Of a DNA stretch of 64,000 nt, positions 29,976 through 46,262 are shown piece by piece. Within the stretch, counting starts at the first letter, position 1, and every line of letters begins with the position of its first letter. The translations under genes and the position numbers were made by a program. Under the pieces are notes generated by a model that had not been told where the DNA came from, did not search any database, and saw nothing but the letters and a program-made list of their open reading frames with translations. The DNA is from a virus. The stretch is taken from positions 34,694-98,693 of IMG/VR virus record IMGVR_UViG_3300034060_000856, one strand, 5' to 3'.

Positions 29976-30081
29976 AGTCAAGTGGCGGAATTGGCAGACG
30001 CTGGGAGATAATACTCAAAACTCCCTGGGATAAGGTGAATTGCATACTTGTCCCGTGAAGGTTCGAATCCTTCTTTGACTA
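29976..30081 (+). tRNA. tRNA-Leu(CAA)-like, with 6-nt insertion in anticodon arm
   Basis: Acceptor AGTCAAG / TTTGACT, D-arm GCGGAATTGGCAGACGC and T-arm GAAGG-TTCGAAT-CCTTC are all regular. The anticodon arm reads GGGAG - ATAATA - CTCAAAA - CTCCC: without ATAATA (30008-30013) the 5-bp stem closes a normal 7-nt loop with T33 and anticodon CAA. The variable arm is unusually long, an 8-bp stem GGGATAAG / CTTGTCCC with a 12-nt loop. 106 nt in all; CCA is not encoded. Confidence 0.75.
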
Positions 30082-30514: not shown

Positions 30515-30706
30515 ATGGAATTAATATTGTATGGAATTATTGGATGTTTGATGGGTAGTTTAATTGTGTTAATTACACTAAACCTATTTAAGTCAAAACC
30601 CTCAATTGACTATCAGGAGTTAATTAAACGATCTGAAGAACGATTAGATAAGTCAAAAAAGTATGGTGAAGAGTTAGACAGAATGTTAGAAGAAATGAAA
30701 AAATAG
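30515..30706 (+). CDS. Small single-pass membrane protein
   Basis: 63 residues. One transmembrane helix near the N-terminus (YGIIGCLMGSLIVLITLNLF) and a charged helical cytoplasmic tail rich in Lys/Glu. The layout recalls small phage spanin-like or anti-host membrane proteins, but no family is recognised. Its TAG stop supplies the first two bases (AG) of the following tRNA, so the mature tRNA must be cut from within the reading frame's end. Confidence 0.65.
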   Translation: MELILYGIIGCLMGSLIVLITLNLFKSKPSIDYQELIKRSEERLDKSKKYGEELDRMLEEMKK

Positions 30707-30830
30707 TCAGGTGGCGGAATGGTAGACGCTATGAATAAAGGTTAATAGTAAAGATGACGCAGAGTAACCTTGAAAGACCCATAAGTGAAGCTCATAAGTT
30801 ATCGTATAGGTTCGAATCCTGTCCTGACTA
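30705..30830 (+). tRNA. tRNA-like gene with ~50-nt insertion, identity unclear
   Basis: Acceptor AGTCAGG / CCTGACT, Leu/Ser-type D-arm GCGGAATGGTAGACGC and T-arm ATAGG-TTCGAAT-CCTGT are sound. The centre is 76 nt. One reading is stem TATGA (30730-30734) / TCATA (30792-30796) with loop GTGAAGC and a 50-nt insertion that itself holds a 7-bp hairpin AAGGTTA / TAACCTT. Another uses GGTT / GACC around CTTGAAA (Ser TGA). The anticodon is therefore undecided. 126 nt. Confidence 0.6.
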
Positions 30831-31460: not shown

Positions 31461-31576
31461 AGTATGGTAGCTTAACTGGTAAAGTGTTTGGTGAGTAGTA
31501 AAAGGTAGGGAGTCGCGACCCAATAATATACAATAAGTCTTGTCAAAAGTTATGGGTTCGGATCCCATCCAAACTA
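31461..31576 (+). tRNA. tRNA-like gene with ~45-nt insertion in anticodon arm
   Basis: 116 nt. Acceptor AGTATGG / CCAAACT (6 of 7 pairs), D-arm GCTTAACTGGTAAAGT, variable AGTT and T-arm ATGGG-TTCGGAT-CCCAT are regular for a class I tRNA. Stem TTTGG (31487-31491) / TCAAA (31543-31547) encloses 51 nt. With a one-base shift (TTTG / CAAA) and the insertion after position 31 the loop would be GTCTTGT, anticodon CTT (Lys), but this is uncertain. The insertion contains TCGCGA and GGG / CCC. Confidence 0.6.
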
Positions 31577-39892: not shown

Positions 39893-40776
39893 AATTCGGA
39901 AATGACCGAATACGTTCTTTGAAAAATGAATTATCCTTTCAGGAGTAAGTAATGAAACTGATAAAGATATTGGGCCGTGTATAGTCCATAAAATAAACTG
40001 GGAAACCAGGATAAAGTGAGTAAGTTGTGTTAACTTATTTGCGGTTTAGGCAACTGAACTTGAGTACACAAGCGGGATACCGTTTAATCTTTAGTACCGA
40101 GGGCAACGCTGTAGGGAAAGTGGTTAGGTGAATTGGCAATGTGGGTTGTCAGTTTGAGATGGGAACATCAATAGGAATAACCCGTAGGAATTATGCAAAA
40201 AATAGAGTTATCCAATTTTATTATTGCGTGTTCCAGTATCATAGGATACTTAAAACCGAAAGGTATGTTGATGTACAGGTGGTGCTGTTATTAACCTTGA
40301 TTAAGTCTTACCAAAGATTTGATTTCGAAGTAGTCTAGAAATATTGAGATGGGGACATTTCACAGAGTAGTTGAGTATCGATTCGTCCAAAAGATGAATT
40401 GGCTCGGTTGACAGACCACTACTTTGATAATCCACAACACAACATTTATTACATATGGATGTAAATCATAAAATAATAATGGAAAAGTGTCTGTCAGGTT
40501 TGGATGAAAGGTGACTACATAGTAATGAGCCGTTCATTGCACACAAGGATCCCAAGTCTGAGTGTAATTATCCGAAAAACCTTTAGTCCCGCAAGGACGA
40601 ACTGGGGAGGCATCCTCAAAAAGAGTCAAGTAAGATGAGAGTAATTCAAACCTCAAGGAGTGGTAAACCTAAAAGACCGTCACTGGGAAATACTTCTCAA
40701 AAGGAAGTGGATACGAAGGGAAACAATAATCCTTCCAAAGGTTCTCAATCACAGGTGTAATCTCAACCTTTTTTTT
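39893..40776 (+). ncRNA. Giant structured non-coding RNA (GOLLD/ROOL-like candidate)
   Basis: About 880 bases without a credible gene (one 65-codon chance frame), G+C clearly above the genome, with its own promoter and terminator. Hairpins visible: ATTCGG/CCGAAT at the 5' end; CTGG-GAAA-CCAG (39998-40009) with a GNRA loop; ACC-GAAA-GGT near 40256; GTCC-CGCAA-GGAC near 40587; ACTTC/GGAAGT near 40692. Terminator AAGGTT / AACCTT then T8 at the end. A boxA-like GTTCTTTGAAA is at 39914-39924. Size, phage setting and nearby tmRNA/tRNAs match the known giant phage RNAs GOLLD and ROOL; membership is not proven. Confidence 0.72.
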
Positions 40777-41047: not shown

Positions 41048-41070
41048 TTAGGATATGTCCTAAAAAAGAA

Positions 41071-41098
41071 AACCCACTTCAAAAGAGTGGGTTTTTTA
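41071..41098 (+). terminator. Rho-independent terminator
   Basis: AACCCACT / AGTGGGTT stem of 8 bp with loop TCAAAAG and a T run; ends the lipoprotein transcript just before the convergent tmRNA 3' end. Confidence 0.88.
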
Positions 41099-41100
41099 AT

Positions 41101-41508
41101 TGGTGGATCCGGAGAGTTTCGAACTCTCGTCCGGCTCGTTTTGTCTAAAAGACAACTACATGCTTAGGTTGGTATTTTCTAATACCCCAAAATATTTGGT
41201 TTTAATTTGACCAAAAACAAAGTTGATCTGTTCTTCACCATCGTAAATCAACAACCAATGGACGACTCGATTTCGGGTTCAGTCGTATTCCACCTTAGTC
41301 ACTTCTGTTCCTGAGCGTATGTGAACCGGCTCGCGTTTCCGTAAACTTATTAAGCTACAGTAACTTCAGAACCTCTTAGTAAACCAAGAGTTTCCATTTT
41401 GTTTAGCAAATTGCCAGTTGTTTTTCTAAATCAGTTTTTAACGAGATTAATTCAGTCTCGGCATGCGTCTAAAATTCAACCAACGCCCGTCAATTCCAAT
41501 ACGGACCC
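41101..41508 (-). tRNA. ssrA: tmRNA (ssrA)
   Basis: 408 nt on the minus strand. 5' GGGTCCG pairs with 3' CGGATCC, followed by an encoded ACCA end. The T-arm is GAGAG-TTCGAAA-CTCTC, and the 5' part has the conserved GACGGGC...GCATGCCGAG...CTCG element of tmRNAs. The tag frame ends GTAGCTTAATAA. Read back from the stop, the tag is about GNLLNKMETLGLLRGSEVTV followed by Ala (41353-41415), 21 residues, ending VTVA instead of the usual LAA or similar; a hairpin lies inside it. It rescues stalled ribosomes and tags nascent chains. Phage tmRNAs are rare but known. Confidence 0.93.
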
Positions 41509-43284: not shown

Positions 43285-44070
43285 ATGGAAAGAAATTTTG
43301 AATTACTAAAAAAGGTATTGTCTGTCCCAACAAAGACTTATCAAGAAGATTTAATGATTGATTTTATTACAACTTGGTTGGACGAAAATCACATACCTTA
43401 TTATGTAGATAATTTTTATAATATCTACGCAACAAAACAAACTGATGAAAATACCCAGTATTTTCCTTGTGTTGTTGCACACACAGACACGGTACATACG
43501 ATTGATTCTATCAACGTTGTTGAGGAAATGTTACCCAATGCTCAAAAAGAAATTAAACTGTCCTTAAAAGCGTATAATGATAGTGGTGAACCAACCGGTA
43601 TTGGTGGTGATGATAAATGTGGTGTCTATGGTTGTCTTGAGTTATTAAAAGAATTACCCAATTTAAAAGCCGCATTTTTTGTTGCGGAAGAAACTGGTTG
43701 TAAAGGTTCTTTTAATGCTGATCCCAAGTTTTTTGAAAATGTCGGTTATGCAATACAGTTTGATGCACCAGAAAATAATATGATTTCAGAGTATCTTATG
43801 TCAAAACCTATGTTTAATAGAGAATCGGAATTTTTTAATGTTGGTGGTCGTTTAATAACAGAACATTTTCCAGGTGATACCAAATACCATAAACACCCCT
43901 ACACCGACATTTTCCCTTTAAACCAAAATTTTGGTCTATCTTGTTTTAATATTTCAATCGGTTATTACAACTATCACACAAGAAATGAATATGTTGTTGT
44001 GGAAGATACCTATAATGGTATTAAAGTTGGTAAACTAATGATAGAAGAACTTGGGTATACCAAACATTAA
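43285..44070 (+). CDS. M20/M28-type zinc aminopeptidase-like protein
   Basis: 261 residues. Metal-ligand motifs in order: HTDTVH (66-71), GGDDKCG (107-113), FVAEETGCKGS (Glu135/136 catalytic region), a central FDAPENN, and a C-terminal YHTRNEYVVVED where the last His ligand is expected. This is a compact di-zinc exopeptidase without the dimerisation domain of PepT. It hydrolyses peptides in the cytoplasm; a phage copy may supply amino acids. Early-type promoter. Confidence 0.82.
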   Translation: MERNFELLKKVLSVPTKTYQEDLMIDFITTWLDENHIPYYVDNFYNIYATKQTDENTQYFPCVVAHTDTVHTIDSINVVEEMLPNAQKEIKLSLKAYNDSGEPTGIGGDDKCGVYGCLELLKELPNLKAAFFVAEETGCKGSFNADPKFFENVGYAIQFDAPENNMISEYLMSKPMFNRESEFFNVGGRLITEHFPGDTKYHKHPYTDIFPLNQNFGLSCFNISIGYYNYHTRNEYVVVEDTYNGIKVGKLMIEELGYTKH

Positions 44071-44071
44071 C

Positions 44072-44101
44072 AAAAAGGGAGGGTTTTTAATCCTCCTTTT
44101 T
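44072..44101. terminator. Bidirectional terminator between convergent genes
   Basis: AAAAAGG(G)AGG / CCTCCTTTTT forms an ~8-10-bp hairpin with T runs on both sides, ending the peptidase and ClpC transcripts. Confidence 0.78.
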
Positions 44102-46147
44102 CTTTCTTCCTTTTTTCTTTGGTTCTGGTTTTGACCTATCTTCAATTTCTATTGTTTGGTCTTCACCTTCTCCTTTTACAAATAACATATATTCTTTTTC
44201 TTCCAAAACTTCATTTGTTAATATTTTTTCTGAAATAAGATCTTCTATTTTATCCTGTATTGCACGTTTAATTGGTCTAGCACCATATTGTTCATCAAAA
44301 CCAACTTTAGCTATTAAATCAATAACAGACGACTCATAAGAAACCTTATATCTCATTGCAGCAAGCCTAGATATCAACTTATCAATTTCAAGTTTTACAA
44401 TTTTATCAATGTGTTCTTTCACTAAAGAATTAAAAATAACAACATCGTCAATTCTATTTAAAAATTCTGGTGCAAAAAACTTACGTAATTCTTTCTTCAA
44501 AACATCTCGTTTATATTCTTCTTGAACCGCCTCACTACTATTACTCGTTTTAAAACCAACACCGCTTCCAAAATCTTGAACTCTTCTAACCCCAATGTTT
44601 GAAGTCATAATAATCAAACAGTTTTTAAAATTAATTTTCCTACCTAGACCGTCTGTCATATGTCCATCATCTAACATTTGAAGTAGTGTTGAGAATATGT
44701 CTTTATTTGCTTTCTCAATCTCATCAAAAAGAATGACACAGTACGGTTTATTTTTTACCTGTTCTGTTAATTGTCCCCCTTCTTCGTGACCAACGTATCC
44801 TGGAGGAGAACCAATAAGTCTTGATATTGTGTGTTTTTCTTGATATTCAGACATATCAACACGAATCAAACTATCTTCGCTACCAAAAATTTCTTTCGCT
44901 AGTTTTTTCGCTAAGAATGTTTTACCAACACCGGTTGATCCTAGAAATATAAATGAACCAATTGGTCTATTTGGATCCTTAATCCCAACCCTATTTCGTC
45001 TAATTGCTTTTGATATTTTTTTAACGGCTTCTTCTTGACCAATCACATAGTCGTTAAGGGAGTCTTCTAAATTAACAAGTGAATTTTTTTCATCAATGTT
45101 AATTTTATTAACTGGTATTTTGGTCATATTTGAGACAACCTCATAGATCAAATCTTCTGGAATACCACGTTTACTAGTCCTTAACCCATCTTCAAATTTC
45201 TTTTTTTCTTCGTCAAGTTTCATTAAGATACTTTTTTCACGATCACGAAGTTCTGCCGCCATTTCATACTTTTGTTTTTTAATAACATCGGCTTTTTCTT
45301 GTTTTATATCAACAGCTTCTTGTTTTAATATCTCAATGTGTTCAGGAAGTTTAATATCAATTTGCATACGTGAACCAACCTCATCTAAAATATCAAATGC
45401 TTTATCTGGAAATTCACGATCGGTAATATATCTATCAGCTAACTCAACACACAACCAAAGTGATTCATCTGTATAATGTACTTTGTGGTGTTCTTCGTAT
45501 TTTTCCTTACTTTGTTTTAGAATTTGAAATGTTTCTTCTTTGGTGGAGGGGTCAACAATAATTTTTTGAAATCTTCTTTCTAAAGCTCCGTCTTTTTCAA
45601 AATGTTTTCTGTATTCGTCAAGTGTTGTGGCACCGATACATTGTATTTCTCCCCTAGATAGGGCTGGTTTAAAGATATTTGACGCGTCAAGTGACCCAGA
45701 ACTATTACCAGCACCAACCATTGTGTGGATTTCATCAATAAAAATTATAATGTTTGGGGTTGCCTGTAATTCTTCAATAATTACTTTCATTCGTTCCTCA
45801 AATTGTCCACGATATTTTGTACCGGCAACAATAGAATTAATATCTAAAGATACAATCCGTTTATCTGCTAAATTTTTTGGACATTCCCCACTATGGATCA
45901 TCATTGCAAGACCCTCAACAATTGCCGTTTTACCAGCACCGGGTTCACCAATGATAATTGGGTTATTTTTCTTTCTTCTAGATAATACTTGAGCAATACG
46001 TAAGATTTCTTTTTGTCTACCAATTACTGGGTCCAATTTACCTTGCTCCGCTGCTTTTATTAAATCTTTACTGAAATTATCTAAAACTGGTGTACCACCG
46101 TCTTTTTTCTTTCCTTTATCACCATCGTCTATAAATTCTATTGCCAT
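44087..46147 (-). CDS. clpC: ClpC-like AAA+ unfoldase lacking the N domain
   Basis: 686 residues from the ATG at 46147; the frame extends 5 codons to a TTG, less likely. Two AAA+ modules: Walker A GEPGAGKT (67-74) and GSTGVGKT (about 400), both with DEIH/DEIE Walker B. Between them a UVR-like motif (YEMAAELRDRE), typical of ClpC. A VGF tripeptide in the second module fits the ClpP-docking loop. The N-terminal substrate-binding domain (~140 residues) is missing. It probably works with host ClpP and altered substrate choice, for example host-factor turnover or virion assembly. A near-consensus host-type promoter (TTG-N20-TAAATTTT) lies upstream. Confidence 0.9.
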   Translation of the reverse strand: MAIEFIDDGDKGKKKDGGTPVLDNFSKDLIKAAEQGKLDPVIGRQKEILRIAQVLSRRKKNNPIIIGEPGAGKTAIVEGLAMMIHSGECPKNLADKRIVSLDINSIVAGTKYRGQFEERMKVIIEELQATPNIIIFIDEIHTMVGAGNSSGSLDASNIFKPALSRGEIQCIGATTLDEYRKHFEKDGALERRFQKIIVDPSTKEETFQILKQSKEKYEEHHKVHYTDESLWLCVELADRYITDREFPDKAFDILDEVGSRMQIDIKLPEHIEILKQEAVDIKQEKADVIKKQKYEMAAELRDREKSILMKLDEEKKKFEDGLRTSKRGIPEDLIYEVVSNMTKIPVNKINIDEKNSLVNLEDSLNDYVIGQEEAVKKISKAIRRNRVGIKDPNRPIGSFIFLGSTGVGKTFLAKKLAKEIFGSEDSLIRVDMSEYQEKHTISRLIGSPPGYVGHEEGGQLTEQVKNKPYCVILFDEIEKANKDIFSTLLQMLDDGHMTDGLGRKINFKNCLIIMTSNIGVRRVQDFGSGVGFKTSNSSEAVQEEYKRDVLKKELRKFFAPEFLNRIDDVVIFNSLVKEHIDKIVKLEIDKLISRLAAMRYKVSYESSVIDLIAKVGFDEQYGARPIKRAIQDKIEDLISEKILTNEVLEEKEYMLFVKGEGEDQTIEIEDRSKPEPKKKGRKKKED

Positions 46148-46262
46148 AATCTTTTTCTTCAAAATTTAGGTATAAAATTACGGTATGTCAACAATTTAAA
46201 AACCGAGTATTATATACAATTAAGTTTGGGTTACTATAATATTTATTATAAAATTTTAGATT

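What the first reader, a model, noticed from the sequence alone, without database searches (positions are those of the whole stretch)
41347..41415. Phage tmRNA with an unusual degradation tag
The tag frame that ends in TAATAA reads about GNLLNKMETLGLLRGSEVTV plus Ala: 21 residues, longer than the usual 8-15, and ends VTVA rather than LAA-like. Other frames stop early or do not end at the typical place. If used, host ClpXP may not recognise it; the phage also carries a ClpC-like unfoldase (44087), which might.
Basis: partly seen in the sequence, partly recalled or inferred. Interest (0 to 1): 0.7.

Follow-up and report, generated by a model that had tools for sequence, protein, structure and literature searches.

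The report
Phage tmRNA with long conserved tag
Large uncultured phages, apparently infecting Bacteroidota, carry their own ribosome-rescue RNA that would mark unfinished proteins with a long peptide tag found in none of the bacterial genomes scanned, next to a gene for a protein-unfolding machine that may read it.

Summary
Window 41508-41101 (minus strand) is a tmRNA (Rfam, 99.6 bits) with a 21-codon tag, GNLLNKMETLGLLRGSEVTVA. Of 98 phage tmRNA matches read, 96 carry tags of this one family: 59 versions, 21-22 residues, all ending in Ala, always with A at -4. All those found through the neighbouring clpC gene, without using the tag, have it. Only this frame shows protein-level selection (pN/pS 0.32, P about 1e-10; other frames 0.72 and 3.1). 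A tag pattern found at least 119 viral contig stretches but one stretch, not a tmRNA, in 257 Gb of bacterial and archaeal genomes. Of 43 clpC loci with enough downstream sequence, 42 have the tmRNA or its tag downstream. The unfoldase is ClpC without its N domain but with the ClpP-docking [VIM]GF loop; some relatives also encode ClpP or SmpB. Best explanation: a phage ribosome-rescue RNA whose tag is a degron suited to the phage's own N-domain-less ClpC. tmRNA and frame are close to certain. Which protease reads the tag is untested; the hydrophobic-Ala end leaves host ClpXP possible. New variant of a known kind.

The parts
41101..41508 (-). tmRNA (ssrA) gene with encoded CCA end and G3-U70 pair in the acceptor stem
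   Evidence: Rfam RF00023, 99.6 bits, full model; G-T at pair 3:70 in 95 of 98 phage matches
41353..41415 (-). tag reading frame, 21 codons: GNLLNKMETLGLLRGSEVTVA, resume codon GGC at 41415
   Evidence: frame-specific purifying selection
41347..41352 (-). two successive TAA stop codons
   Evidence: sequence
41419..41419 (-). A at position -4 of the resume codon, equivalent to E. coli A86
   Evidence: A in 96 of 96 phage tmRNAs with this tag; role of A86 from PMC2481249
41530..41560 (-). Bacteroidota-type promoter TTG-N20-TATATTTG, 21 bases before the tmRNA 5' end
   Evidence: such a promoter upstream of 69 of 85 phage tmRNAs, 0.6 expected from shuffles
41069..41097 (.). inverted repeat followed by T run, likely shared terminator of the tmRNA and the facing short ORF (read by eye)
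   Evidence: sequence
44087..46162 (-). clpC-like AAA+ unfoldase, 691 aa: two AAA+ rings and ClpC-type middle domain, no N domain, GVGF ClpP-docking loop; same strand, upstream of the tmRNA
   Evidence: Pfam and PHROG phrog_4871; phmmer to ClpC structures; loop and N-domain check in 76 relatives
43285..44070 (+). M20-like peptidase gene between clpC and the tmRNA; used as control gene, not claimed as part of the mechanism
40363..40769 (+). GOLLD RNA facing the tmRNA; conserved neighbour in many relatives, functional link unknown
   Evidence: Rfam RF02032 314 bits

Best explanation
The window carries a working phage tmRNA. During infection the host ribosome and SmpB (in a few relatives the phage's own SmpB) would use it to rescue ribosomes stalled on broken mRNA, appending Ala plus GNLLNKMETLGLLRGSEVTVA. 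The tag would act as a two-part degron: a conserved front half (G-N-V/T-L/F-x-K-M/L-x-x-L/I-G-L-I/L/V-R) and a small-hydrophobic plus Ala C-terminus. It would be read chiefly by the phage's own N-domain-less ClpC, encoded a few kb upstream, which passes substrates to ClpP (host ClpP, or phage ClpP in some relatives). Supported by sequence: the tmRNA, its frame, conservation, Bacteroidota-type promoter, clpC linkage and ClpP-docking loop. Inferred: expression, tagging, degradation, and that ClpC rather than host ClpXP is the main reader.
For: tmRNA: Rfam full-length match and 56 of 81 related records above cut-off; A at -4 in 96 of 96 and G-T at pair 3:70 in 95 of 98; Bacteroidota promoter before 69 of 85. 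Tag: one family in 96 of 98 matches and in all those reached through clpC without tag bias; frame-specific selection. Virus-specific: at least 119 viral stretches versus one stretch, inside a protein gene, in 257 Gb of prokaryote genomes. Coupling: 44 of 47 records found by tag alone carry this clpC, and 40 of 40 with both mapped have the tmRNA 0.9-6.0 kb downstream on the same strand; 42 of 43 clpC loci with at least 6.5 kb downstream have tmRNA or tag. ClpC: [VIM]GF loop in essentially all, N domain absent in all 76 examined. Tag distances track ClpC (r 0.74) more than the peptidase between them (r 0.28). ClpP in 12 and SmpB in 2 of 31 IMG/VR records, SmpB beside the tmRNA.
Against: No expression or tagging data. 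Gene proximity is not proof of a substrate relation. Distance correlations are not corrected for shared ancestry, with one control gene. Tags end in -VA, -AA, -TA, -GA or -IA, which host ClpXP might accept. Many relatives, including 304 kb and 273 kb records, show no ClpP or SmpB and would need the host's. The bacterial hosts' own tags could not be read here.
Confidence: 0.5

Rival explanations
1. Supplementary rescue only: the phage tmRNA adds rescue capacity when host mRNA is shredded, and the tag is degraded by host ClpXP (or other host proteases) through its hydrophobic-Ala-COO- end. The long front half is a spacer or adaptor site and ClpC is linked for other reasons.
For: All tags end in Ala after V/A/T/G/I; published work says changes at the last two alanines of ssrA raise KM with little effect on Vmax (PMC7652416). 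Large records without ClpP or SmpB.
Against: The front half is strongly conserved (G1 and G11 invariant, L12 in 64 of 65, K6 in 56 of 65), unlike a spacer; the canonical YALAA end is lost throughout; near-constant clpC neighbour.
Confidence: 0.27
2. The tag is not mainly a degron: it rescues ribosomes but protects, localises or signals, for example sparing truncated phage proteins from host ClpXP, or serving as a ligand that regulates phage ClpC.
For: Loss of the canonical YALAA end and strong conservation of the front half.
Against: The conserved C-terminal hydrophobic-Ala is what a C-degron needs; a neighbouring unfoldase with a ClpP loop points to degradation.
Confidence: 0.17
3. Chance or decayed element: a tmRNA relic, or a tag read in another frame.
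For: ARAGORN does not detect it; some relatives score low.
Against: Frame-specific selection with P about 1e-10, invariant A at -4 and Ala end, promoters retained.
Confidence: 0.03

Closest known systems
Bacterial one-piece tmRNA (ssrA, Rfam RF00023)
   Same: Full-length covariance-model match, G3-U70 acceptor pair, A four bases before the resume codon, Gly resume codon, Ala-ending tag
   Different: 21-22 residue tag of a virus-specific family with a conserved front half, ending V-x-V-A-like instead of YALAA; the published tag range is 8-35, usual 10 (PMC3968760)
Phage tmRNAs already reported (mycobacteriophages Bxz1, Wildcat and others, Bacillus phage G in PMC4131195; Maribacter phage Panino in PMC11590407; huge phages with tmRNA and SmpB in PMC7162821)
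   Same: Phage-borne tmRNA genes, one of them in a phage of a flavobacterium
   Different: Their tags were not compared here. The passages read describe no conserved long tag family and no tmRNA-clpC linkage, and the literature searches returned none. No cultured-phage record matched this tag.
ClpC (Bacillus and Staphylococcus type)
   Same: Two AAA+ rings, ClpC-type middle domain, ClpP-docking loop; 728 bits to a ClpC structure
   Different: The N domain is missing in all relatives examined, so adaptor-dependent selection by that domain is not available

Membership tests
tmRNA (RF00023) | Covariance-model match over the whole model above the curated cut-off | tested here: met
   99.6 bits versus 47, model 1-374
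tmRNA (RF00023) | tRNA-like domain able to take Ala: G3-U70 and CCA end | tested here: met
   GGG...TCCACCA in the window; G-T at pair 3:70 in 95 of 98
tmRNA (RF00023) | Resume codon with the key A four bases upstream | tested here: met
   A in 96 of 96; role from PMC2481249
tmRNA (RF00023) | Internal tag frame ending at a stop, under coding constraint | tested here: met
tmRNA (RF00023) | Charged with Ala, binds SmpB, tags nascent chains on ribosomes | not testable with these tools
   needs biochemistry
Canonical ssrA degron (...YALAA) | C-terminus LAA or YALAA | tested here: not met
   last four residues VTVA 38, AVVA 12, VAVA 10, VVAA 8 and others of 96; none ends LAA
Canonical ssrA degron (...YALAA) | Degraded by ClpXP | not testable with these tools
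   needs degradation assay
ClpC unfoldase | Two AAA+ domains with Walker A, and ClpC-type middle domain | tested here: met
   Walker A pattern in 75 (D1) and 72 (D2) of 76 relatives
ClpC unfoldase | ClpP-docking loop | tested here: met
   GVGF in the window; VGF or IGF in 67 of 76 by pattern, MGF or IGF by eye in the unmatched ones printed
ClpC unfoldase | N-terminal domain | tested here: not met
   no Clp_N match; in-frame extension upstream of the match at most 74 aa in 76 relatives

The most novel reading that the evidence does not exclude
A private viral protein-quality-control pathway: phage tmRNA writes a virus-specific degron that only the phage's N-domain-less ClpC (with host or phage ClpP) reads, in some lineages complete with phage SmpB and ClpP, so that clearing of stalled polypeptides during infection is separated from host ClpXP.
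Probability: 0.35. Interest if true: 0.82.

Novelty: new variant of a known kind. Interest (0 to 1): 0.62.

Why it matters
Phage tmRNAs have been noted for years without a settled purpose. Here a conserved, virus-only tag and a linked unfoldase give a concrete, testable reason: the phage may write and read its own degradation signal. If true, it would be a natural tag-protease pair orthogonal to the host's, useful for controlled protein turnover, and evidence that phages take over the output of ribosome rescue as well as ribosome rescue itself.

Tried and rejected
DNA search of cultured phages with the tmRNA and a protein search with the tag: no match. SmpB not found in the window's own record, nor ClpP by tblastn with a relative's protein; the record is a 98.7 kb linear contig, so absence is weak. 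The single tag-pattern hit in prokaryote genomes (L160) was rejected: no tmRNA in Rfam; by eye it lies inside a protein-coding gene. Canonical G-x-x-x-Y/F-A-L-A-A tags in viral contigs: 72 pattern hits, only 3 passing my strict filter and confirmed as tmRNA, none with this clpC in the fetched DNA. My first tmRNA regex was too strict to count with; positional tag finding was used instead. Could not read tags of bacterial Bacteroidota genomes. Search of the phage's other ORFs for tag-like sequence or endings: none. A possible FeoA-like look of LGLLRGSEVTV was dropped, since other family members do not share it. PHROG labels of ClpP as head maturation protease were not followed for G038: the neighbours tested were not head genes and it matches true ClpP structures.

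Full report
Observation. Rfam's tmRNA model matches window 41508..41101 on the minus strand end to end (99.6 bits, gathering score 47). ARAGORN does not call it, which may be why such genes go unannotated. Reading from the Gly codon at 41415 gives 21 codons, GNLLNKMETLGLLRGSEVTVA, then TAA TAA down to 41347. The neighbouring frames stop after 3 and 16 codons. The charged Ala would make the appended peptide 22 residues.

Is the frame real? I fetched relatives in two independent ways. First, 80 viral loci were found through the neighbouring unfoldase gene, and 56 of the 81 viral records searched (these plus one pattern hit) have a tmRNA above cut-off. Of 98 tmRNA matches read, 96 carry one tag family with 59 distinct sequences, 88 of 21 and 8 of 22 residues. 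The two others come from one 484 kb phage record with a different tmRNA and a short tRNA-like match. The first set (58 sequences: the window, one pattern hit and 56 reached through clpC, where the tag played no part in selection) belongs to the family without exception. Position -4 is A in all 96, matching E. coli A86, whose mutation abolishes or badly harms activity (PMC2481249). Every tag ends in Ala. In 27 independent close pairs the tag frame has 65.5 synonymous and 60.5 nonsynonymous changes, pN/pS 0.32, P 1.2e-10, while the other frames give 0.72 and 3.14 (all-pairs version). The most conserved reading frame is how the tag frame was settled in Carsonella (PMC4131195).

Where it occurs. 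The tag pattern matched one stretch in 257 Gb from 84,980 bacterial and archaeal species, L160, which is not a tmRNA. No cultured phage record matched the tag. The pattern covers the 21-residue form only. Upstream of 69 of 85 of these tmRNAs is a Bacteroidota-type promoter, TTG-N17-23-TAnnTTTG, against 0.6 expected, so the hosts are probably Bacteroidota and the tmRNA has its own promoter. Records reach 321 kb; all are linear contigs of uncertain completeness.

The unfoldase. The 691-residue protein at 44087-46162 is closest by sequence to ClpC among solved structures (728 bits). It lacks the N domain in the window and in all 76 relatives examined. The ClpP-docking loop is GVGF in the window and VGF or IGF in 67 of 76 by pattern, with MGF or IGF in the unmatched ones I printed. 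It is tightly linked: 44 of 47 records found by tag alone carry it, and in 40 of 40 mapped cases the tmRNA is on the same strand 0.9-6.0 kb downstream. From the other side, 43 clpC loci have at least 6.5 kb of downstream sequence. 40 contain a tmRNA from my set. L062 has the tag and a tmRNA 3' end, and L066 has a sub-cut-off tmRNA (39.9 bits) whose tag reads DNTLSKMATLGLTREAVVVAA by eye. Only L073 has none. Pairwise tag distances follow ClpC distances (r 0.74) as closely as the rest of the tmRNA (0.72), but much less the peptidase gene lying between them (0.28). Given the rest of the tmRNA the tag-ClpC correlation is still 0.45 (permutation P 0.001). This is suggestive only: permutation ignores ancestry and there is one control gene.

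Other parts of the pathway. In 31 IMG/VR records, ClpP was found in 12 and SmpB in 2; of three 484-642 kb database phages all three have a ClpP match and two have SmpB. In both IMG/VR cases SmpB lies beside the tmRNA (G031: SmpB 83981-84397, tmRNA 83042-83455; G083: SmpB 208807-209220, tmRNA 209677-210063). The ClpP of G038 matches true ClpP structures (164 bits) and the neighbouring genes tested are not head genes; the Ser-His-Asp triad looks intact by eye. Large records such as 304 kb G020 and 273 kb G084 show neither, so host factors would be needed there.

Mechanism. Trans-translation by the phage tmRNA follows from its anatomy and from established tmRNA biology. What the tag does is inference. 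The front half is conserved (G1 and G11 invariant; L12, K6 and R14 mostly so), followed by an acidic or polar stretch and a V-x-V-A-like end. A front half that is more than a spacer, a C-terminus of the kind AAA+ pores grip, and a neighbouring unfoldase without an adaptor-binding N domain together favour direct recognition by phage ClpC. Host ClpXP is not excluded: published work says changes at the last two alanines of ssrA raise KM but hardly change Vmax (PMC7652416). I put the private-reader model at about 0.5, host ClpXP as the main reader at 0.27, and a non-degron role at 0.17.

Novelty. Phage tmRNAs are known (PMC4131195, PMC7162821, PMC11590407), and tags of 8-35 residues are on record (PMC3968760). 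The literature searches returned no report of a conserved virus-specific long tag or of tmRNA-clpC linkage; that is limited to the open papers held. The tags of the previously reported phage tmRNAs and of the bacterial hosts were not compared here.

Noticed in passing
window 29976-30081, 30705-30830, 31461-31576: Three tRNA genes with extra sequence: 51- and 57-base segments where the anticodon loop region (7-9 bases) should be, and a 13-base loop plus long variable arm. ARAGORN without an intron option misses them. They look like short intron-like inserts in phage tRNAs.
   Followed up: partly
window 40363-40769 and relatives (e.g. G020, G025, G011, G084): A GOLLD RNA faces the tmRNA's 3' end, often within a few hundred bases; GOLLD was found in 28 of 48 related phage records, mostly in this place. 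Two 635-642 kb phages also have GOLLD near clpC but no detected full-length tmRNA.
   Followed up: partly
L323 (LR756508.1 92434-92880): A 484 kb phage has a different tmRNA whose likely tag frame runs 36 codons (GVNNADYESAGFTAEDFAQMDGES...), and a second 112-base tmRNA-like match at 414804-414915.
   Followed up: no
L333:7388-8065: Phage-encoded ClpP (225 aa) in a 321 kb relative, outside the head genes; PHROG profiles call it head maturation protease, which looks wrong here.
   Followed up: partly
L371, L386, L392: Viral contigs carrying tmRNAs with canonical tags GESNYALAA, GEEQFALAA and GERTYALAA, without this clpC in the fetched DNA; L392 is in a 184 kb contig with several tRNAs.
   Followed up: no
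L415 12011-12406: Related tmRNA whose resume codon appears to be GAC (Asp) instead of GGC, with the same tag family.
   Followed up: partly
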